This document shows positions 1 to 6,452 of a stretch of DNA of 6,524 bases, one piece after another. How positions within the stretch are numbered: position 1 is the first letter of the stretch; the number at the start of each line of letters is the position of its first letter. Under the pieces are notes generated by a model. That model ran no database searches. It was not told where the DNA came from and saw only the letters and a list, made by a program, of their open reading frames with translations. This DNA is from Anaerolineales bacterium (GTDB taxonomy: Bacteria; Chloroflexota; Anaerolineae; Promineifilales; Promineifilaceae). The stretch lies in contig JAGQGA010000078.1 in the NCBI GenBank assembly GCA_020432595.1, positions 1 through 6,524 of the forward strand. Reading direction: 5' to 3'. Made by a program: the position numbers and the translations under genes.

Positions 1-384
1 AACGGATTGCTCTCCAGACTCGCGCTGTCCGTCATTGGACGTCAGAACGGCCGTTGATTCCTAAGAGGGATTGAAACACAAGATCGCTCAAGGGCACCCC
101 TGGCCGATCTTCGTCAGAACGGCCGTTGATTCCTAAGAGGGATTGAAACCGATTACTCATCACATCTACGTGCACTGTGGTGAACCCAGTCAGAACGGCC
201 GTTGATTCCTAAGAGGGATTGAAACTCCTACTTCTTTTAAGATCTTTGACGCGCTGGCCAGATGGTCAGAACGGCCGTTGATTCCTAAGAGGGATTGAAA
301 CACATTGTGGGGTGGCCGTCGGCGGCGGAACGGGCGTGTCAGAACGGCCGTTGATTCCTAAGAGGGATTGAAACAATTAAGTGA

Positions 385-409
385 AGTCTAGCCATGCAAT
401 GGCTAGACT
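385..409. repeat. Perfect hairpin inside CRISPR spacer 375-411
   Basis: AGTCTAGCCAT (385-395) and ATGGCTAGACT (399-409) are exact reverse complements around a 3-nt loop GCA. The 25-bp hairpin fills most of the 37-nt spacer. It was presumably captured from a palindromic site in an invader, such as an operator, terminator or recombination site. The source cannot be identified from here. Confidence 0.85.
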
Positions 410-1227
410 GAGTCAGAACGGCCGTTGATTCCTAAGAGGGATTGAAACTAGTCTCCACCCACAAATACCTTCACCAGCCAAAGGAAGTCAGAACGGCCGT
501 TGATTCCTAAGAGGGATTGAAACCAACAGTCGGAACCGCAACAATTCCGTGGTCTTTCTGTCAGAACGGCCGTTGATTCCTAAGAGGGATTGAAACAAAA
601 CCATTCCGACACCCTTTTTACACTACCAAATCGTCAGAACGGCCGTTGATTCCTAAGAGGGATTGAAACAATTTTCAACCCTTCAGTGACTAAGTCAGCA
701 TTGAGTCAGAACGGCCGTTGATTCCTAAGAGGGATTGAAACATTGAGGTTTGCGATCAGGGCGTACCTGAAAGCCTAAACGTCAGAACGGCCGTTGATTC
801 CTAAGAGGGATTGAAACAATCTGTTACCGGATGGGTGATCGTGCCTGATACTACGTCAGAACGGCCGTTGATTCCTAAGAGGGATTGAAACGGGTACTCT
901 CCGTTTTCCCCACCGTAGTAACCAAAGGCGTCAGAACGGCCGTTGATTCCTAAGAGGGATTGAAACTTCAATAACTCACCAACGTAAGGCCGAACCATAA
1001 AAGCGTCAGAACGGCCGTTGATTCCTAAGAGGGATTGAAACAAACACTTGCTGGGGTGTCATGTTTGCCTCCAATGAGTCAGAACGGCCGTTGATTCCTA
1101 AGAGGGATTGAAACACGACCGGTTTGCCTGAGGTAGTGCACCTTGAGCTAGGTCAGAACGGCCGTTGATTCCTAAGAGGGATTGAAACAATCGCATTGCC
1201 ATTTTGCAATGTGACCAAATTACATGA

Positions 1228-1255
1228 GTCAGAACGGCCGTTGATTCCTAAGAGG
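1228..1255 (+). other. Left remnant of CRISPR repeat 17, interrupted by the IS
   Basis: These are the first 28 nt of the 37-nt repeat, ending in CCTAAGAGG, directly abutting the IS end. The final 9 nt (GATTGAAAC) are missing here and are found at 3336-3344. Joining 28 nt and 18 nt and subtracting the 9-nt duplication gives exactly 37 nt, so simple insertion explains the break with no other loss. This remnant lacks the handle and the expected Cas6 cleavage point. Confidence 0.95.
1247..1255. repeat. Target site duplication, left copy (CCTAAGAGG)
   Basis: The same 9 bp directly flank the IS on both sides (1247-1255 and 3327-3335), and an uninterrupted repeat has one copy. The boundary is ambiguous because the inverted repeat can be extended outward by GG and then A: 20-bp ends with 9-bp duplication, 21 with 7, 22 with 5, or 23 with 3 all fit the sequence. 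Confidence 0.85.
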
Positions 1256-1275
1256 AGGGTTTTAGTAAACATAAA
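1256..1275 (+). repeat. IS terminal inverted repeat, left end
   Basis: AGGGTTTTAGTAAACATAAA is an exact reverse complement of 3307-3326. It lies on the 3' side of the transposase gene. Identity stops after 20 bp inward (G here against A in the right end read as complement). Confidence 0.97.
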
Positions 1276-1536
1276 GTAGGTTCAATCTTGAGCGTTTGCC
1301 AAAATGCCGCACGCCAAAAGGCAAGAGGACTGAAATTAGTCTTGTCGTAGCCGCTTTGACACCCCCATATGTGGGCAAACCAGCCCAATATGATGGTTTT
1401 CATGAATATAATGAACGCTTAATATTAAGCGTTTGCCTAAACCCTTAGGAAAATCAGGGGGTGGAAACTGAAACTGACTATGGCTCCCCCCCTCACCCGA
1501 ACAGCCCCACCAAACTAAACGGTTAAAATAAACTTG
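1276..1536. other. Non-coding left margin of the IS, with two GCGTTTG motifs and a 20-bp palindrome
   Basis: I see no coding sequence here. TTGAGCGTTTG (1288-1298) and TTAAGCGTTTG (1425-1435) match the motif repeated at the right end of the IS. AACGCTTAATATTAAGCGTT (1414-1433) is a perfect 20-bp palindrome made of two opposed copies of the AAGCGTT core. No clear terminator for the transposase was found; the palindrome could serve in part, but it lacks a T-tract. Confidence 0.7.
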
Positions 1537-3003
1537 TTATTTGCTGATAGCTCGTTGCTTCTGTTCCTGCACACGCAACAAGGCGCGTAAATTGAGGAGC
1601 AGGTAAATCAGGGAGTTTTGGTTGGTAATAGATTGCTGGTTACGCACTTTCGGCCGTTCGATGCCTAAAGCCAAAGCCTGAGAAAAAATGCGTTCGGCTG
1701 CAGTGCGTTGCTTATAGAGTACCTTATATTCCCAACTGTGGCGGTCAAGCTGGTAACGTAGCCGCGTCCCCTTATTTGTAGGTAAAGTCACCTGGCACCC
1801 TCCGGTCGCCCATTTCTCATGACCTATCGGGCATGGCTCAACTGGGAGAGCCGACAATCGTACAGGGCAAATATGGCGGGCGCATTCGTGGGGAACGGAA
1901 GTAGCCTGCTTCATGAAAGTGCTCTTGACCGGCATCGCTAATTGGGCTGCACACAAGGGCAAGCCTTGCTCATCAAACTGATAAAGCCGGCCTTTGGTAC
2001 GGTCAACATAGGGAATGGCGGCAAAACCACCGGCTCGGTCAAAATAATCATACACATACCAGGCATCATAGGCAGCATCGGCCGTGCCAAAGGGAGGCGC
2101 AAAGCCTAAACGCGCTTCTACTTGCTGCATTAAGGGAGCAAAATAGCTGACATCACTTTTGTCAAATGTGGCCGTCATCTCTGCCAAGACAAACTCACCC
2201 CAACCCGCCACTTTGGTGACAACCACCCCTGAGGCATAGCCCCAATAATATTCGCCCTTACCGACCCCTTTGCCAGCCACCGGCGTGCCTTCCTTGGTCG
2301 GGGTTGCTTCTGGTGGCAAATTGCGGCGGCGTTTACACCCCAGCTTACAATCATTGTCACCGGCTGGCTGGTTGGTTTTGTCCAAGCGGCCTTCTTTTAT
2401 ATAAGCTTTAGGATTGTTTTCCTTAACCCAGGCCAGGATATGCTTGGTATCTATAGCAACGGCGTGACCAAACCCACTCTCTACTGGCAATAATAGACGC
2501 AGTTGTGCCACCGTATCGGTGAGGAGGAATTGGAGGAGCGCGTTGGGTAAGGTGCGGAGAACATGGCTAAAATGGGCGGCTGAAGGTAAGCTGGCAGCAA
2601 CATCCACCCCACATGGCATCTCCTGACACAGTTGTAACTCAAAACCCAGCACCCAGGTCAAGGCTGGATGTGCTATTAGAAATTGGCGCAGCTGTCCCAT
2701 CCCCTGTATTTGTTGATCCCCTTTGACAAGCAAAGCAGCCATGTAGGGTAGTGGGTTCTCTGGGTATGGCCCTGGTTGCGCGGCTTGTGGCCGCCAAGGC
2801 AGGTTTTCCCAGTCGAGTTGTCCCAGCATTTGGATGTATTTCAGCGACAGCGGGCATTGTTGCACCATCGGCGGCAGTTGGTGCAACGGCCAATATTTGA
2901 TTTCGGCCAATCCCGGTGGATAGATAACCCTTGGCAGCGGCGGTACTGCCGTTGACTTGGAACCAAGTCGTTGAAAAAGTTTGGGTACAGATATAATGAA
3001 CAT
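1537..3003 (-). CDS. DDE transposase of the IS
   Basis: A 488-residue protein that should catalyse strand cleavage and transfer at the IS ends. Three acidic residues fit the DDE catalytic triad: D185 in AIDTKHI, D309 in GTADAAYD, and E437 in YKQRTAAERIF, where the Y-(2)-R-(3)-E spacing (Y430, R433, E437) is the signature of DDE_Tnp_1-type transposases. Residues 84-94 resemble the N-terminal helical region common in these proteins. Between D185 and D309 lies a basic stretch (CKRRR, 223-227). Between D309 and E437 is a Cys/His cluster (C374, H377, C379, C391, H395, C403) that may bind a metal (inference). Residues 463-478 (NSLIYLLLNLRALLRV) form a typical C-terminal hydrophobic helix. The start is well supported: AAGGAG sits 8 nt before ATG at 3003. 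The frame is open throughout, so the enzyme looks functional. IS family assignment needs a database search. Confidence 0.93.
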   Translation of the reverse strand: MFIISVPKLFQRLGSKSTAVPPLPRVIYPPGLAEIKYWPLHQLPPMVQQCPLSLKYIQMLGQLDWENLPWRPQAAQPGPYPENPLPYMAALLVKGDQQIQGMGQLRQFLIAHPALTWVLGFELQLCQEMPCGVDVAASLPSAAHFSHVLRTLPNALLQFLLTDTVAQLRLLLPVESGFGHAVAIDTKHILAWVKENNPKAYIKEGRLDKTNQPAGDNDCKLGCKRRRNLPPEATPTKEGTPVAGKGVGKGEYYWGYASGVVVTKVAGWGEFVLAEMTATFDKSDVSYFAPLMQQVEARLGFAPPFGTADAAYDAWYVYDYFDRAGGFAAIPYVDRTKGRLYQFDEQGLPLCAAQLAMPVKSTFMKQATSVPHECARHICPVRLSALPVEPCPIGHEKWATGGCQVTLPTNKGTRLRYQLDRHSWEYKVLYKQRTAAERIFSQALALGIERPKVRNQQSITNQNSLIYLLLNLRALLRVQEQKQRAISK

Positions 3004-3069
3004 GAGAGTCTCCTTCTATACGGTAAAACTGTTCGGGTAAAAGCAGTTTAATCGAGAAGGGACTCTCAT
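3002..3069 (-). promoter_or_regulatory. Leader hairpin masking the transposase ribosome binding site and start codon
   Basis: On the minus strand the segment holding AAGGAG and ATG (3002-3017) is the reverse complement of an upstream arm (3055-3069), giving 15 pairs with one bulged base. An inner stem, AAACTG with CAGTTT (3026-3031 and 3044-3049), stacks inside. RNA containing both arms would bury the ribosome site and start. This resembles the IS10/IS50 arrangement in which read-through transcripts cannot be translated. Pairing is seen in the sequence; the regulatory role is inferred. Confidence 0.7.
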
Positions 3070-3098
3070 TAACAGCCAAAGGGCAACAAGCGGGTCAA
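3068..3098 (-). promoter_or_regulatory. Possible transposase promoter
   Basis: On the minus strand TTGACC (3093-3098) is followed after 18 bp by TGTTAA (3069-3074), a good -35 and a weak -10. A start about 7 nt downstream, near 3061, would fall inside the upstream arm of the leader hairpin. The native transcript would then lack most of that arm and be translatable. Prediction from hexamer match only. Confidence 0.4.
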
Positions 3099-3306
3099 AT
3101 GAGCTCTCATGGTTTGCTTTGTCGGGTCAAAAAGCTGATAATGTGACCGAACGCTAACAAATAATAATGGTGAGCGTTTGTAAAATAATTGTGAGGGTTT
3201 GTTCTTTGCCAATCCAGAAAAAACGGTAACAAATAAATAATTGTCAGCGTTTGCTGGGTAATGTTGAGCGTTTGACTGTTAATATTGAGCGTTTAACGCT
3301 CACAAT
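3070..3306. repeat. Non-coding right margin of the IS with 21-bp-spaced subterminal repeats
   Basis: No gene is seen. Five direct copies of an 11-bp motif start at 3170 (GTGAGCGTTTG), 3191 (GTGAGGGTTTG), 3243 (GTCAGCGTTTG), 3264 (TTGAGCGTTTG) and 3285 (TTGAGCGTTTA). Spacing within each group is exactly 21 bp, two DNA turns, so the copies face the same side of the helix. The last copy is half of an inverted repeat, TGAGCGTT-T-AACGCTCA (3286-3302), just inside the terminal repeat. A separate short repeat GGGTCAAA occurs twice (3092-3099 and 3124-3131). The likely role is transposase or host-factor binding (inference). Confidence 0.8.
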
Positions 3307-3326
3307 TTTATGTTTACTAAAACCCT
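3307..3326 (-). repeat. IS terminal inverted repeat, right end
   Basis: TTTATGTTTACTAAAACCCT is a perfect complement of the left end. It lies upstream of the transposase gene, next to the cluster of subterminal repeats. Confidence 0.97.
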
Positions 3327-3335
3327 CCTAAGAGG
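3327..3335. repeat. Target site duplication, right copy (CCTAAGAGG)
   Basis: This is the second copy of the 9-bp duplication, followed by GATTGAAAC, which completes the CRISPR repeat. The duplicated bases are the small dyad of the repeat (CCT, AAG, AGG), so the IS landed on the symmetric core. Confidence 0.85.
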
Positions 3336-3568
3336 GATTGAAACGTTTCTCTCGCTTCTTAGTCTTTGGCCACTTTCGCCAGTCAGAACGGCCGTTGATT
3401 CCTAAGAGGGATTGAAACGAGACCCATTAGAAACAAAGCATGGCGCAGTGTAACAAAGTCAGAACGGCCGTTGATTCCTAAGAGGGATTGAAACTAGTAC
3501 CTACTGTTTTGGCCATATACCTAAATACACAGTCAGAACGGCCGTTGATTCCTAAGAGGGATTGAAAC
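3327..3568 (+). CRISPR. CRISPR array, distal segment beyond the IS (3 intact repeats plus the right part of repeat 17)
   Basis: The right remnant of the split repeat (3327-3344) begins with the duplicated CCTAAGAGG and keeps the ATTGAAAC handle. Intact repeats follow at 3382-3418, 3458-3494 and 3532-3568, with spacers of 37, 39 and 37 nt at 3345-3381, 3419-3457 and 3495-3531. The repeats are identical to those left of the IS, so this is one array and the split has not been followed by visible decay. New spacers are normally added at the leader end, so these should be the oldest spacers. The final repeat is not degenerate, unlike many terminal repeats; its 3' half also forms the left arm of the terminator that follows, which may explain its conservation (inference). 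Confidence 0.97.
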
Positions 3569-3600
3569 GAGCCTGCGGCTCGTTTCAATCCCTCTTTTTT
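3554..3600 (+). terminator. CRISPR array terminator built from the last repeat and its inverted copy
   Basis: AAGAGGGATTGAAACGAGCC (3554-3573) pairs perfectly over 20 bp with 3577-3596 around the 3-nt loop TGC. The downstream side ends in six T (3595-3600). Fifteen bases of the left arm (3554-3568) are the 3' part of the last CRISPR repeat; the other five lie just after it. The T-tract exists only for rightward transcription, which independently supports the array direction. In the transcript, the terminal repeat's handle and Cas6 cleavage site would be locked in this long stem. Confidence 0.9.
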
Positions 3601-3749
3601 ATTATAAGCTGGCGGATCGAGGAGGGAGTGTTTGAATATCTCAATTTGTTCTGACATTTTGGCATCATAAGCAAAACAACGGCCGTTTTTGACCAACCAA
3701 AATTCACCTTGCAACCATCACAAATCTATTGCAGCGTGAAACAGTGGAT
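3601..3749. other. Intergenic region after the array; possible gene remnant on the minus strand
   Basis: No convincing gene. A minus-strand frame beginning near 3714 reads about 40 plausible codons (MQGEFWLVKNGRCF at its start) and then runs straight into the terminator and CRISPR repeats, so it cannot be an intact gene with its own end. It may be the remnant of a gene cut off when the array arose, or chance. One AACGGCCGTT copy lies at 3678-3687. No strong promoter or ribosome site for the downstream hydrolase was recognised. Confidence 0.35.
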
Positions 3750-4388
3750 ATGAAACACAAAGCAATTATTTTCGATCTGGGTGGGGTGTTGGTGGTCTAT
3801 CAGCACCAAGCCGTGGTGGAGGCCATTGCCCGGCTTTGCCGGGGGAATGTGGAAGCGGTGCGCGGGGTGCTGAGCCGGTATGGGGATGTGCTGGGGACGG
3901 GGGCGCAAAACGGCCGTTTTCTCTACCAAGTCCTACAACAAGAAGCGGGGCTGGTGAGCAGCTATGAGGCGTTGGAAACGGCCGTTTGTACCTACCCCCG
4001 GCGGGATGAACGGGCATTGGCGTTGGTGCGGGAGTTGGCAAAACGGCCGTTTCTTGCCCTCGCCATCATCAGCAACACCGTGGAGCAACATGCCGCCTGG
4101 CAGCGTCGCCATGTGCCCGAACTCAGCCACTGTCACCCGGTCATTTTTAGCAACGAAGTGGGCCTGCTCAAACCCGACCCCGCCATCTACCAGCTTGCCC
4201 TCGCCCAGCTTGGGCTGCCCCCGCAGCAAACCCTCTTTATTGACGACAACCTCCCCAACGTCACCGCCGCCCAGCAGCTTCACATGGCCGCCCACCACCA
4301 CCAGGGGTGGGATGAGACGGAGCAGGTGATTGAGGAGTGGTTGGGGAGGATGACCGACGACGGACGACCAACGACGGACAAACTATAA
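3750..4388 (+). CDS. HAD-superfamily hydrolase (probable small-molecule phosphatase)
   Basis: A 212-residue cytosolic protein, a normal size for HAD subfamily IA. All four HAD motifs are visible: motif I FDLGGVL with nucleophile D9, motif II IISNT with S108, motif III K141 in GLLKPDP, and motif IV FIDDN with D165/D166 for magnesium. Residues 15-95 would be the helical cap. Motif I has Gly at the usual second Asp position (DLGG), as in YihX-like glucose-1-phosphatases (DLGN), so a sugar-phosphate substrate is possible but unproven. The ATG at 3750 is preferred because it places motif I at the usual distance from the N terminus; TTG 3729 and GTG 3744 are alternatives, and none has a clear ribosome site. 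The last 12 residues come from a short GAC-rich tandem repeat and look like an added tail. Three AACGGCCGTT copies fall in the gene in three different codon registers. It stands alone and converges on the next gene. Confidence 0.9.
   Translation: MKHKAIIFDLGGVLVVYQHQAVVEAIARLCRGNVEAVRGVLSRYGDVLGTGAQNGRFLYQVLQQEAGLVSSYEALETAVCTYPRRDERALALVRELAKRPFLALAIISNTVEQHAAWQRRHVPELSHCHPVIFSNEVGLLKPDPAIYQLALAQLGLPPQQTLFIDDNLPNVTAAQQLHMAAHHHQGWDETEQVIEEWLGRMTDDGRPTTDKL
4353..4379. repeat. Short GAC-rich repeat at the end of the HAD gene
   Basis: ACGACGGAC occurs at 4357-4365 and 4371-4379, inside a run of ACC/GAC/GGAC triplet-like units. It encodes the polar tail TDDGRPTTD. It looks like an intergenic repeat that invaded the 3' end of the gene and was absorbed into the reading frame. 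Confidence 0.6.
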
Positions 4389-4416
4389 CCTGGGCAAGCC
4401 AGAACCAAAAAAGCAT

Positions 4417-4504
4417 TGAACCGCAGAGAATGCAGAGTTCGCAGAGAAGGCAAAGAAAAAGAGACCTTTTCTTCCTTTGCGCTCTTTGCGCCCTCTGCGG
4501 TTCA
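4417..4504. repeat. Small hairpin element of 9-bp GCARAG units
   Basis: TGAACCGCAGAG (4417-4428) is the exact complement of CTCTGCGGTTCA (4493-4504). Between them the left side continues as 9-bp units ending GCAGAG or GCAAAG, and the right side carries matching CTTTGCGC units, so the whole 88 bp folds imperfectly. It lies between convergent genes. The same unit type recurs at 6453-6512, so this is a dispersed element, non-coding as far as I can see. Confidence 0.75.
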
Positions 4505-4531
4505 CATTCTTGTTCACGACACAAGAATGTG
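4503..4531. repeat. 11-bp inverted repeat between convergent genes
   Basis: CACATTCTTGT (4503-4513) pairs with ACAAGAATGTG (4521-4531) around a 7-nt loop. It overlaps the GCARAG element by two bases and lies 13 bp from the end of the next gene. It could terminate either convergent gene, but neither side has a T-tract, so the function is open. Confidence 0.6.
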
Positions 4532-4543
4532 GCTGATAAACGC

Positions 4544-4939
4544 CTAAGAAGGTTTCATAAAAGCAACAACGCCACTGCCAACCAGCATCACCAGGGCCAC
4601 CGGTGCCCAAATAGCCCGTTCACCTGCGCTGGGGGTAATCAGGTTGAGAATCAGGCTCACGGCGGAAAACACAACCACCACCCACAGCAGCCAACGGGCT
4701 GCCCGCCACCCTGACAGCGAAATCAGGCCTGCTTGACCCAGGACAACCAACATGAAGCCCAGCAAAAGCAACGCCTGAATAACGGCCGTTACGCGCAACG
4801 GTGGCGGAAACTGCCCTGGGTAAGCCCCACCCATGGCAAATTTACCCCAGGGTGCGCCAAGAGCCAAAGCGATCTGGAAAGCAACAACCACTACAGTGGC
4901 GATTGTGTACAAAATTGCGGCTATTCGTCTCACTGCCAT
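4544..4939 (-). CDS. Small four-helix integral membrane protein of unknown function
   Basis: A 131-residue protein with four predicted membrane segments, roughly 5-27, 50-70, 81-103 and 110-128, and a short basic N terminus (MAVRR). The loop after helix 1 has the motif GAPWGKFAMGG (28-38) followed by PGQFPPPLR, which recalls uncharacterised small bacterial membrane proteins with a conserved GAPWG-GG loop and a downstream P-LR. I do not know a function. The start is ATG at 4939, because GGAGAGGAG lies just upstream (4944-4952); an in-frame TTG at 4954 overlaps that ribosome site and is unlikely. Residues TAV (51-53) are encoded by an AACGGCCGTT copy. It is probably a single-gene unit, with a repeat at its promoter side. 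Confidence 0.8.
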   Translation of the reverse strand: MAVRRIAAILYTIATVVVVAFQIALALGAPWGKFAMGGAYPGQFPPPLRVTAVIQALLLLGFMLVVLGQAGLISLSGWRAARWLLWVVVVFSAVSLILNLITPSAGERAIWAPVALVMLVGSGVVAFMKPS

Positions 4940-4960
4940 TTTTCTCCTCTCCAATCAAGC

Positions 4961-4990
4961 CATCCGCGTTCATTCGCGTTTGTCCGTGTC
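4961..4990. repeat. Three tandem 10-bp units upstream of the membrane protein gene
   Basis: CATCCGCGTT, CATTCGCGTT and TGTCCGTGTC follow one another with exact 10-bp period and decreasing similarity. They sit between the membrane protein start and the antitoxin stop. They could affect the membrane protein promoter, but no promoter is obvious. Confidence 0.6.
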
Positions 4991-5003
4991 CTATTTTGGT
5001 TCA

Positions 5004-5321
5004 CTACGAAACGGCCGTTTCCAAACGATGAGGCATCAGTTGGTATCCCATAGCCCGCATAATGGCGTTGATGCTGTCAAGGCGCGGATTGCCCTTTGTC
5101 GAAAGGGCTTTTTGCACCCCTTGACGGGTCATCCCAATTTCGTTGGCAACCGTTGTAACCCCTTTCACGCGGGCAATAATTCGGAGAGCAGCCAAGAGCG
5201 TTGCGGAGTCCCCATCTTGGGCATAGTCAGCAAAGGCTTCGGTCATAAACGCATCTATTTCTTCAGGATGCTGGCTAAAATATTCAACGGAAAGGTCGGT
5301 TAAAGTGCGGTAATTAGTCAC
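5004..5321 (-). CDS. higA: HigA-family antitoxin, XRE-type helix-turn-helix
   Basis: A 105-residue protein of the addiction-module antidote type. It should bind and neutralise the HigB-like toxin encoded just upstream and repress their shared promoter. Residues 1-50 resemble the family's helical N-terminal part (YFSQHPEEIDAFMTEAF, then DGDSATLLAALRIIARVKG), and 55-76 form the helix-turn-helix (TTVANEIGMTRQGVQKALS), followed by the family's GNPRLDSINAIMRAMG. The GTG start at 5321 overlaps the toxin's stop by 8 bp and has AGGAG 10 nt upstream. Longer in-frame starts (to 5393) would lie deep in the toxin gene and are unlikely. The C terminus ETAVS is encoded by GAAACGGCCGTTTC, the window's iterated palindrome, directly before the stop. 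Confidence 0.9.
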   Translation of the reverse strand: MTNYRTLTDLSVEYFSQHPEEIDAFMTEAFADYAQDGDSATLLAALRIIARVKGVTTVANEIGMTRQGVQKALSTKGNPRLDSINAIMRAMGYQLMPHRLETAVS

Positions 5322-5652
5322 GGGTTTTATACTCCTGCCAATAGGCTTGAGCCTGTTGAATGTCGCGGCTTTGGCTATCCTTATCACCTCCACTCAACAG
5401 AACAACAATAGTGTCATTATCCTCACCAAAATAGACACGGTAGCCTGAACCAAAAAAGAAACGAAGCTCGTTAACCCCTGCCCCAACAGCTTTGAAGTCA
5501 CCGTAATGGCCTTGCTCAACTTGGAGTAAACGTTTCAGAATGCGACGACGAGTAGTTGCATCACGAAGACTGTTGAGCCAACGGCTAAAAGGCTCATGGC
5601 CACCACGGTCGCGGTAGATGATCACTGTTTTAGGGTTGTTTGAATCGACCAT
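5314..5652 (-). CDS. higB: HigB/RelE-family toxin (phage Gp49-like addiction-module killer)
   Basis: A 112-residue basic protein. The stretch GAGVNELRFFFGSGYRVYFG (57-76), then IVVLLSGGDKDSQSRDI (82-98), closely follows the signature of the addiction-module killer family, including the GGDK-SQ-DI block and a Tyr-Trp near the C terminus. Family members are RelE-fold, ribosome-dependent mRNA interferases; basic residues R36, R37, K40, R41, R64 and R72 are candidates for RNA contact (inference). The toxin-before-antitoxin order and overlapping frames are typical of HigBA. The ATG at 5652 has only a weak ribosome site (GACGAG), which would keep toxin output low. A promoter with a palindromic operator lies immediately upstream. 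Confidence 0.92.
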   Translation of the reverse strand: MVDSNNPKTVIIYRDRGGHEPFSRWLNSLRDATTRRRILKRLLQVEQGHYGDFKAVGAGVNELRFFFGSGYRVYFGEDNDTIVVLLSGGDKDSQSRDIQQAQAYWQEYKTRD

Positions 5653-5676
5653 AGACTCGTCTTTGTTGATATTAAC

Positions 5677-5705
5677 AGTATATCAGCGCAAACTATAGTT
5701 TGCAA
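5677..5705 (-). promoter_or_regulatory. higBA promoter with a 16-bp palindromic operator
   Basis: On the minus strand TTGCAA (5700-5705) and TATACT (5677-5682) are separated by exactly 17 bp, a credible sigma-70-type promoter that starts about 18 nt before the toxin ATG. The perfect palindrome GCAAACTATAGTTTGC (5688-5703) covers the spacer and most of the -35, where a bound HigA or HigBA complex would block polymerase. A third half-site, GCAAAC at 5709-5714, lies 21 bp from the first. Autorepression is the family rule; here it is inferred. Confidence 0.75.
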
Positions 5706-5739
5706 TAGGCAAACAAGCGTAAGGAGATTTAGCAAAACG

Positions 5740-5777
5740 CCCTACTCCCCACGCCCCACGCCCCACAACACCCTACG
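5740..5777. repeat. 7-bp tandem repeat (CCCCACG) across the end of the Pr6Pr-like gene
   Basis: Exact units CCCCACG at 5747-5753 and 5754-5760 and CCCCACA at 5761-5767 are flanked by degenerate CCCTACT (5740-5746) and CCCTACG (5771-5777). The stop codon of the membrane protein gene (5773-5775) lies in the last unit, so the repeat forms its 3' boundary. Confidence 0.75.
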
Positions 5778-6408
5778 CCCGCCGCGCCTGCCAGCGATCC
5801 ACCTGCCACATCAGCGTGCCGAGGAACAGATAGGCCAGCATCAACACCCCTGACCACTTGGCAACGCCGCCGTACCCTAGCGCGTTCACATCCATAAAAA
5901 AGTAGGGGTAGGAGCCAACCAGCGGGCCGCGAATGAGCCAGTAGCCCAGGTAGGCCAGGGGGTAAATGAGCCAGAGGAAGGGATAACGGCCGTTTATCTG
6001 CCCCTTCTCCACATGCCGCAGCCAAAAGACAACCCCCAAAATGGGTGCCAGCGAGTGGCCGCAAATTTCCGGTATCCAGTCCAACACCGTCACCAGCCCT
6101 TGTGGGCCGCCCAGCAAAAACCAAAACCCCAGCCCGACAAAGGCAATATAAAGACAGCACGCCGTCTGCACGCCGGGCGATTTAAACCAGTCATACAGCC
6201 GGCCGCGCCCCCGCAGCAACGCCCCACTCATCACCACCATCAACGAGTTGGTGGAAATGGTGAAGTAGCTAAACAAAACGGCCGTTTCCCGCCCCCACTC
6301 CCCCACCGGAGCCGCCGCCAGCCGCTTGGCATACCAAATCAAAACGGCCGTTAACGACACCCCCAGCATCACCCACAAAAATGCTCGACGTTCCTTTTCC
6401 TTGTCCAT
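5773..6408 (-). CDS. Pr6Pr-like integral membrane protein
   Basis: A 211-residue protein with about six hydrophobic segments: roughly 10-28, 44-64, 83-103, 119-130, 144-161 and 185-202. Three blocks fit the Pr6Pr family of bacterial membrane proteins: FSYFTISTNSL (46-56), GHSLAPILGVVFW (117-129) with a membrane His, and WLIYPLAYLGYWLIRG (146-161) followed by YPYFFMDV (167-174). The biochemical role of the family is not known to me. The start is ATG at 6408, because AAGGAGG (complement of 6414-6420) lies 5 nt upstream; TTG 6429 and ATG 6426 in the same frame lack a ribosome site. Three AACGGCCGTT copies encode TAV (20-22), TAV (42-44) and NGR (139-141), two of them inside membrane helices. It appears to be a single-gene unit. 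Confidence 0.82.
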   Translation of the reverse strand: MDKEKERRAFLWVMLGVSLTAVLIWYAKRLAAAPVGEWGRETAVLFSYFTISTNSLMVVMSGALLRGRGRLYDWFKSPGVQTACCLYIAFVGLGFWFLLGGPQGLVTVLDWIPEICGHSLAPILGVVFWLRHVEKGQINGRYPFLWLIYPLAYLGYWLIRGPLVGSYPYFFMDVNALGYGGVAKWSGVLMLAYLFLGTLMWQVDRWQARRA

Positions 6409-6452
6409 CCCATCCTCCTTAGGCATCAAAGATTATCGGAAATAAGAATTTC

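What the first reader, a model, noticed from the sequence alone, without database searches (positions are those of the whole stretch)
3678..6352. A highly iterated 10-bp palindrome, AACGGCCGTT, saturates the chromosome flank
Seen: nine exact copies in the 2,956 bp from 3569 to the window end, about one per 330 bp; a given 10-mer is expected about once per million bases at even composition. Eight are inside genes and several are symmetric beyond 10 bp. Known: cyanobacterial HIP1 (GCGATCGC) is the closest analogue. Inference: this genome uses its own HIP-like element, perhaps a protein binding, methylation, chromosome organisation or repair site.
Basis: partly seen in the sequence, partly recalled or inferred. 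Interest (0 to 1): 0.75.

Follow-up and report, generated by a model that had tools for sequence, protein, structure and literature searches.

The report
Chloroflexota genome-wide palindrome with dialects
A short mirror-symmetric DNA word is repeated thousands of times through the genomes of one family of mostly uncultured Chloroflexota bacteria; it is kept in place between species, changes spelling between lineages, reshapes proteins and is shared by some phages, much like a puzzling element known from cyanobacteria.

Summary
The window holds 29 AACGGCCGTT: nine in the flank, 20 in the repeats of a CRISPR array. The window's own genome is not held, but relatives settle the question. In one family (52 genomes) the unit is the 8-mer ACGGCCGT, up to 15,176 copies in 7.5 Mb, O/E 16-61 in stretches of 26 genomes; AACGGCCGTT is a lineage-specific extension. 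Sister lineages use TCGGCCGA (two genomes), GCGGCCGC (one) or CGGCCG without fixed outer bases: dialects. Sites lie in and outside genes, are scarce closer than about 40-60 bp, and persist between species: where amino acids are conserved, 82 of 94 keep the exact word against 15 expected. Dialect-specific tripeptides are raised 3-6-fold. Some phage contigs carry the word at host density. It works like cyanobacterial HIP1, with another core in another phylum; six paper searches found no earlier report. What reads it is unknown: cytosine methyltransferases are patchy, and one DUF1156-like methyltransferase is in 29 of 31 8-mer genomes but also 11 of 21 others.

The parts
3678..3687 (.). AACGGCCGTT, intergenic, upstream of the HAD gene
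3909..3918 (.). AACGGCCGTT in the HAD-like gene, read Asn-Gly-Arg; 14-bp perfect palindrome
3977..3986 (.). AACGGCCGTT in the HAD-like gene, read Thr-Ala-Val; 12-bp palindrome
4042..4051 (.). AACGGCCGTT in the HAD-like gene, read Lys-Arg-Pro-Phe; 12-bp palindrome
4781..4790 (.). AACGGCCGTT in the open frame 4544-4954 (-), read Thr-Ala-Val; 12-bp palindrome
5010..5019 (.). AACGGCCGTT at the 3' end of the open frame 5004-5393 (-), read Thr-Ala-Val; 14-bp palindrome
5985..5994 (.). AACGGCCGTT in the open frame 5773-6429 (-), read Asn-Gly-Arg
6277..6286 (.). AACGGCCGTT in the open frame 5773-6429 (-), read Thr-Ala-Val; 12-bp palindrome
6343..6352 (.). AACGGCCGTT in the open frame 5773-6429 (-), read Thr-Ala-Val
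41..1256 (+). CRISPR array, left part: 16 complete 37-bp repeats and the left part of a split one, each with AACGGCCGTT (first 46-55, last 1233-1242)
3329..3568 (+). CRISPR array, right part: rest of the split repeat and three complete repeats (3382, 3458, 3532), each complete one with AACGGCCGTT
1257..3328 (-). insertion sequence (transposase frame 1537-3003, PF01609) inside a repeat; contains no ACGGCCGT

Best explanation
AACGGCCGTT is the local, extended form of a highly iterated palindrome: an 8-bp word, ACGGCCGT, that members of one Chloroflexota family carry at about 1,000-2,100 copies per Mb. Shown: it is genome-wide, held at individual positions between species at the level of DNA, scarce at short spacing, dialectal (a shared CGGCCG core with outer bases that differ between lineages), written into protein sequence, and present in some phage contigs. 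Inferred: a host factor reads the palindrome on duplex DNA, most likely a symmetric DNA-binding or DNA-modifying protein with a footprint of some 40-60 bp that serves chromosome organisation or repair; each site is favoured because that factor uses it, and dialects arose when the factor's outer-base contacts changed. Other replicons in the cell benefit in the same way, which would explain the phages.
For: Whole-genome counts against the reversed-word control. Dialects with a constant core. In-register conservation 50-52% at under 75% identity against 7-10% for other 8-mers and 82 of 94 against 15.2 expected on synonymous grounds. Deficit of short gaps: 39 of 8-30 bp against 85 expected, no deficit for four control 6-mers. 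Flank preference independent on the two sides, as for two half-sites. Tripeptide excess follows the dialect. Phage portal and head genes lie on contigs with host-like density.
Against: No such factor has been identified. The short-gap deficit could have another cause, and there is an excess at 80-120 bp (170 against 136). Nearly all Thr-Ala-Val in A-type genomes are HIP-coded (360 of 372 in G326), which a drive explains at least as well. Noncoding density is lower than coding in two of four sets (656 against 1,673 per Mb in G211). Alignments are pairwise and related, so the counts are not independent.
Confidence: 0.5

Rival explanations
1. Molecular drive without function: a repair, recombination or conversion process turns near-misses of the palindrome into the palindrome, so sites pile up until protein constraint stops them.
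For: About as dense outside genes as inside in G326 and in the T set; 97% of Thr-Ala-Val HIP-coded in G326 (360 of 372); inner one-off variants at or below expectation, O/E 0.19-0.96; phage contigs also carry it.
Against: The deficit of short gaps is not expected of a site-by-site drive; the switch of outer base between lineages would need the converting machinery to change specificity as well.
Confidence: 0.22
2. Methylation-linked HIP as proposed for cyanobacteria: an orphan DNA methyltransferase marks the core and mark-dependent repair makes and keeps the sites. The candidate writer here is a DUF1156-like enzyme.
For: A conserved 660-690-aa protein with DPMMGGGTTLHEA and DPPY motifs is in 29 of 31 genomes with an 8-mer HIP against 11 of 21 family members without (Fisher P = 0.0015, kinship ignored). 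Elhai 2015 reports fitting methyltransferases for every cyanobacterial HIP genome he studied (PMC4390886, sections 2.5 and 3.4 part 1 read).
Against: The candidate is missing from the six free-core genomes (G168, G296, G336, G337, G338, G221) with very high CGGCCG, from G001 and G010, and is present in 11 family members without an 8-mer HIP; it is only distantly like curated models (76 bits against a cut-off of 1,000 for NF042963). C5 enzymes (PF00145) are in only 24 of 52 genomes. G221 shows none of the three types. Genome completeness is not given, so absences are soft.
Confidence: 0.18
3. A DNA uptake sequence: competence machinery prefers fragments with the word, and uptake plus recombination spread it.
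For: Thousands of copies and dialects around a constant core, as in Neisseriaceae (PMC3630211, abstract seen).
Against: Fully palindromic, whereas known uptake sequences are directional (recalled); phage contigs at host density are not expected of it; competence genes were not searched.
Confidence: 0.07
4. Ordinary composition, codon usage, a transposable repeat or an assembly artefact.
For: Most copies are in genes and prefer one frame (360, 214 and 96 in G326).
Against: Reversed-word control 6-42 copies against 2,492-5,060 in the eight richest genomes; order-3 Markov O/E about 25; copies outside genes; no homology beyond a short flank preference; amino-acid conservation at sites equals background, 47%.
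Confidence: 0.02

Closest known systems
HIP1 (GCGATCGC) and alternate HIPs of cyanobacteria (Elhai 2015, PMC4390886: abstract, sections 2.3 and 2.5, first part of 3.4 and found passages read)
   Same: Short GC-rich palindrome, about 500-2,500 per Mb, in and outside genes, with alternate spellings in some relatives, one-off variants concentrated at the outer positions.
   Different: Other phylum, other core (CGGCCG), a graded series from 6-mer to 8-mer to 10-mer inside one family, present in phage contigs, and no cytosine methyltransferase common to the HIP genomes.
HIP1-like site in CRISPR1 repeats of Synechocystis 6803 (Scholz 2019, PMC6604393: abstract and passages seen)
   Same: The genome's iterated palindrome sits in every repeat of a CRISPR array.
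   Different: There the repeat holds a one-base deviation of HIP1 and its methylation was measured; here the exact 10-mer is in all 20 repeats and nothing is known of methylation. By density alone (about 1,600 per Mb) a 37-bp repeat would hold the 8-mer in roughly 5% of cases, so this may be coincidence.
DNA uptake sequence dialects of Neisseriaceae (Frye 2013, PMC3630211: abstract seen)
   Same: Thousands of copies, lineage dialects around an invariant core.
   Different: Palindromic here; phage contigs carry it; no uptake evidence.
Dimeric repressor operators, e.g. TetR-type TTHA0973 of Thermus (PMC6651687: passages seen)
   Same: One predicted TTHA0973 site contains AACGGCCGTT; shows that a homodimer can read such a palindrome.
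   Different: A local regulator; its 14-bp consensus gave 142 predicted occurrences in that genome, not thousands.

Membership tests
HIP (highly iterated palindrome, general kind) | short palindrome far above Markov expectation across the whole genome, hundreds to thousands per Mb | tested here: met
HIP (highly iterated palindrome, general kind) | present in coding and noncoding DNA | tested here: met
   (crude ORF calls; noncoding density lower in two of four sets)
HIP (highly iterated palindrome, general kind) | maintained beyond what protein constraint explains | tested here: met
HIP (highly iterated palindrome, general kind) | a cognate methyltransferase in each HIP genome (Elhai's association) | tested here: inconclusive
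HIP1 proper | sequence GCGATCGC, in cyanobacteria | tested here: not met
   the word is ACGGCCGT, in a Chloroflexota family (record titles)
DNA uptake sequence | thousands of copies with lineage dialects | tested here: met
DNA uptake sequence | directional, non-palindromic motif (recalled) | tested here: not met
   the word is a perfect palindrome
DNA uptake sequence | uptake preference in transformation | not testable with these tools
   needs a bench assay; competence genes not searched
Restriction-modification target | site avoidance, or a cognate enzyme pair shared by the carriers | tested here: not met
   the site is enriched and no C5 enzyme is shared by the carriers; restriction enzymes were not searched
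Dispersed transposable repeat (REP or MITE) | homology beyond the short word | tested here: not met
   flanks show only graded single-base preferences

The most novel reading that the evidence does not exclude
A separate HIP system in Chloroflexota whose spelling evolves like a dialect (CGGCCG, then ACGGCCGT, TCGGCCGA or GCGGCCGC), which does not depend on the cytosine methyltransferases linked to cyanobacterial HIPs, is strong enough to rewrite the amino-acid sequence of many proteins, and is followed by phages, pointing to an undiscovered duplex-reading factor that acts on all DNA in the cell.
Probability: 0.4. Interest if true: 0.87.

Novelty: new variant of a known kind. Interest (0 to 1): 0.74.

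Why it matters
What HIPs are for has been open since HIP1 was described in 1995, in part because most cyanobacteria use one word. Here one bacterial family holds genomes with the bare 6-mer, three 8-mer dialects, lineage-specific 10-mers and none, so the reading factor can be sought by co-variation. Copies in phage contigs bear on function against drive. The methylation model becomes testable in a phylum where the usual cytosine enzymes are patchy. In practice the word and its dialect look usable as a barcode for sorting metagenome contigs.

Tried and rejected
The 10-mer as the unit: rejected, because G012 has 143 ACGGCCGT in 80 kb and only 6 AACGGCCGTT. C5-methyltransferase as the common factor: rejected as universal. 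An early reading, that some A-type genomes lack any methyltransferase of the searched families, was wrong: weak PF01555 matches in G326, G015, G184 and G315 are parts of a conserved DUF1156-like protein. The C5 enzyme shared by G168, G336, G337 and G085 (66-76% identity) is like Dcm (the two scanned, L191 and L208: NF007772, below its cut-off, and TIGR00675; that Dcm reads CCWGG is recalled), so a poor candidate for CGGCCG. Distance dependence among codable tripeptides was weak (33 of 43 HIP-coded under 30 bp from another site, 92-95% at 30-1,000 bp), since most such tripeptides owe their existence to HIP. Same-place dialect swaps between A and T or G genomes: 4 of 17 observations, both directions counted, too few to judge. 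Other CRISPR arrays with a dialect-matched repeat: none seen in the stretches held at that point. Array against phage records: no match. Rfam on the window: no match. Marker tree of 8 genomes: only the two T genomes are firmly joined (100/99); G004 was a long branch of unsure place. Samples of G327, G331 and G338 were masked (all N) and gave no k-mer data; their whole-genome counts stand. Some samples (G004, G001, G010, G011, G014, G016, G017) include stretches found by the triple-copy scan and are biased towards dense sites; the whole-genome counts are not. Paper searches for an earlier report; one search had 196 papers, 20 listed; the library is partial, and one key paper (PMC3271550) is not held. 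Searches asked other questions.
Full report
OBSERVATION. AACGGCCGTT occurs 29 times in the window against 0.01 expected from dinucleotide shuffles. Nine copies lie between 3678 and 6352 as reported, eight of them in open frames. The other 20 sit one per repeat in a CRISPR array (repeat GTCAGAACGGCCGTTGATTCCTAAGAGGGATTGAAAC; 19 complete, one split by an insertion sequence at about 1257-3328). In the flank all nine ACGGCCGT are in the 10-mer form. The insertion sequence has none (chance of none 0.036 at 1,600 per Mb), as expected of recently arrived DNA.

WHERE IT OCCURS. No genome is held for the window. A scan of one genome for each of 84,980 species for three copies spaced by 31-61 bp gave 48 stretches in 18 genomes; 14 are labelled Chloroflexi, Chloroflexota, Anaerolineae or a member, the other four Saprospiraceae, Betaproteobacteria, Gemmatimonas and Hyphomicrobiales. 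Counts in those 18 genomes ran from 5 to 5,060, with 3 to 42 for the reversed word; the three lowest (17, 14, 5) are the last three labels. In 298 genomes drawn from the class of G004, six had 2,306-5,060 copies, five had 83-840 and 287 had at most 24. In the family of G004 (52 genomes) 18 had 1,443-5,060. One member, G085, has contigs of 3,989,163 and 1,004,044 bases, which I take from recall to be Ca. Promineofilum breve; proteins 61% identical to the DUF1156-like protein of G015 are named from Ca. Leptofilum and an Ardenticatenaceae bacterium by their sources. The family is thus probably Promineifilaceae (recalled name, not in the passages seen), filamentous bacteria of sludge. The window's HAD protein is 42-45% identical to its best matches in this family (G321, G005, G014, G326, G017), so the window is a relative and not a held species; against a simple story, its best match, G321, lacks the 8-mer (155 copies in 4.7 Mb). 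By word form the window (9 of 9 in the 10-mer) resembles G004 and G011, where 82-84% are (5,060 of 6,147 and 2,503 of 2,984).

THE UNIT AND ITS DIALECTS. In fetched stretches of G326, G211, G325, G231 and G012 the most over-represented 8-mer is ACGGCCGT, O/E 21-28 on an order-3 Markov model. In samples of the 52 family genomes (three all N and dropped), ACGGCCGT is the top palindromic 8-mer in 27 (O/E 16-61, but 7 in G168), TCGGCCGA in G314 and G112, GCGGCCGC in G198 and TGCCGGCA in G320 (some small or biased samples, see Tried and rejected). Whole-genome counts agree: in 28 genomes that I class as A-type, ACGGCCGT runs at 991-2,102 per Mb (27 genomes) and 437 (G315). It is 198 and 85 in G314 and G112, where TCGGCCGA reaches 9,414 and 7,668. 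TGCCGGCA, the reversed-word control, is 3,665 in G320. G168, G296, G336, G337 and G221 have CGGCCG without fixed outer bases as the top palindromic 6-mer (2,460-5,819 per Mb in samples; O/E 3.8-8.5 at order 2); in G085 the same 6-mer is only 1.6 times expectation. In whole genomes CGGCCG against the reversed GCCGGC is 21,019 against 132 in G168 and 13,814 against 51 in G198. So the core is shared, the outer base is A, T, G or free, and the next base out is mostly A in several A-type groups, C (39%) in the G012 group and G (38%) in G322-324. The two T genomes are sisters in a small marker tree (100/99), consistent with one switch; the other branches are unresolved.

BEHAVIOUR OF THE SITES. Density per 20 kb in G326 is 20-42 and the CV of gaps is 0.79-1.14 in eight sets, so there is no regular array. 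Short gaps are scarce: pooled, 39 gaps of 8-30 bp against 85 expected, 29 against 38 at 30-40 and 58 against 74 at 40-60; then 77 against 71 at 60-80 and an excess, 170 against 136, at 80-120. Four control 6-mers show no deficit. Coding and noncoding densities per Mb are 1,667 and 1,444 in G326, 1,268 and 1,315 in the T set, 1,673 and 656 in G211, 1,908 and 1,118 in the G012 group (simple ORF calls). The flank preference is independent on the two sides. One-off variants at the outermost base have O/E 2.9, 1.7 and 0.24, inner ones 0.19-0.96 (expectations include the HIP's own 4-mers).

MAINTENANCE. In cross-species alignments (97 kept), A-type sites are in register in 70 of 139 at under 70% identity (identical 8-mers elsewhere 7.2%), 48 of 93 at 70-75% (9.6%), 44 of 57 at 75-85% (18.9%) and 12 of 13 at 85% or more (52%). 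In 232 coding blocks of alignments under 85% identity, 94 of 200 site observations (both directions counted) have all overlapping amino acids conserved, the same share (47%) as any three residues; 82 of these 94 keep the exact 8-mer against 15.2 expected from how often the same codons are kept elsewhere. The DNA word, not the protein, is what is kept.

EFFECT ON PROTEINS. Thr-Ala-Val, one reading of ACGGCCGT, occurs at 27.8-30.6 per 10,000 codons in three A-type sets (expected 4.4-4.8 from composition; Val-Ala-Thr and Ala-Thr-Val 2.6-4.5), 6.2 in the T set and 4.4 in four genomes without the 8-mer; 360 of 372, 145 of 153 and 205 of 210 are HIP-coded. Asn/Asp/His/Tyr-Gly-Arg is raised about threefold (17.8-22.3 against 5.6-6.6). 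Ser-Ala-Asp/Glu, the reading of TCGGCCGA, is 28.3 in the T set (expected 6.9) and 3.9-4.3 in the A sets. So the dialect is written into proteins. Stretches around the S12 gene carry 0-4 sites per 3.0-3.3 kb (8 genomes), fewer than average in most, consistent with protein constraint.

PHAGES. Two scans of IMG/VR for close triples gave 13 stretches for ACGGCCGT and 9 for TCGGCCGA. In the first, 11 of 13 stretches have 1,248-4,654 ACGGCCGT per Mb; L224 and L226 have 435 and 618. In the second, all nine are under 1,000 TCGGCCGA per Mb, mostly local clusters, so phage copies are shown for the A word only. The stretches were picked for a triple, and several look alike in site spacing, perhaps five lineages. 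Of seven proteins scanned, L001 gives a portal protein, a head maturation protease or major head protein and a weak terminase match, L221 a portal protein, L222 a ParB-like and a PAPS-reductase-like protein, and one from L220 nothing. In L001 A precedes 41 of 44 half-sites, as in the 10-mer hosts; L221 and L230 favour G (12 of 24, 13 of 26); L222 has no preference. Hosts are not known.

WHAT READS IT. PF00145 is in 24 of 52 genomes and absent from HIP-rich ones such as G326, G015, G211 and G005. PF01555 has a match in 48 of 52, strong in many, but G326, G015, G010, G184 and G315 reach only E 5e-4 to 1e-9. The weak matches in G326, G015, G184 and G315 include one conserved protein of about 655-690 aa (cut by the contig end in G315) with a DPMMGGGTTLHEA and a later DPPY motif, distantly like DUF1156 methyltransferases. 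Its ortholog, some fragmentary, is in 26 of 28 A-type, 2 of 2 T and 1 of 1 G genomes, but also in 11 of 21 family members without an 8-mer HIP, and in none of the six free-core genomes (grouping mine; Fisher P = 0.0015, kinship ignored). The protein family is large: 1,541 members at E <= 1e-50 among 7,998 candidates scored. It is a candidate writer, neither sufficient nor, on these drafts, clearly necessary. Completeness of the genomes is not given.

COMPARISON. Elhai (PMC4390886; abstract, sections 2.3 and 2.5, first part of 3.4 and passages read) reports alternate HIPs at about 500-2,500 per Mb in cyanobacteria, each genome with a putative fitting methyltransferase; the present element behaves like one but has its own core, phylum and dialect series. 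Scholz and others (PMC6604393; abstract and passages) report a HIP1-like site in every CRISPR1 repeat of Synechocystis, a parallel to the window's array. DUS dialects of Neisseriaceae (PMC3630211, abstract) are the nearest analogue of the dialects. No earlier report was found and 60 of this partial library.

JUDGEMENT. Shown: a genome-wide, dialectal HIP in one Chloroflexota family, kept at the level of DNA. Inferred: a duplex-reading host factor. Open: binding, modification or drive.

Noticed in passing
window 1257-3328: An insertion sequence (488-aa frame, PF01609 transposase domain) has split one CRISPR repeat; the repeat stretch CCTAAGAGG stands on both sides, as a target duplication would.
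   Followed up: partly
window 3554-3596: The array ends in a perfect 20-bp inverted repeat with a 3-bp loop, made from the last repeat and followed by a run of T; terminator or end mark?
   Followed up: no
window 5004-5652 (-): A toxin-antitoxin-like pair: Gp49-like protein (PF05973) and an HI1420-like antidote (PF21716).
   Followed up: no
G002, G006, G007, G009, G018: MAGs labelled Saprospiraceae, Betaproteobacteria, Gemmatimonas, Hyphomicrobiales and one Chloroflexi have few copies; in G009 the listed hits lie on seven contigs only, which suggests binning contamination that the word could flag.
   Followed up: partly
G320: This family member has a different palindrome, TGCCGGCA (3,665 in 4.0 Mb), with GCCGGC 7,315 and CGGCCG only 447.
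   Followed up: no
G168 and G198: GCCGGC, the reversed core, is almost missing (132 in 4.1 Mb, 51 in 8.0 Mb); unexplained.
   Followed up: no
L259 (G112): The DUF1156-like gene of this T-type genome is split over two reading frames: sequencing error or decay.
   Followed up: no
L009, L023, L048, L034 (G005): HIP triples spaced about 50 bp recur many times and these stretches align to each other at 77-95%; likely tandem protein repeats with one HIP per unit.
   Followed up: no
G168:C405, G336:C6, G337:C250, G085:C2: A shared Dcm-like C5 methyltransferase (66-76% identity); no restriction partner was looked for.
   Followed up: partly
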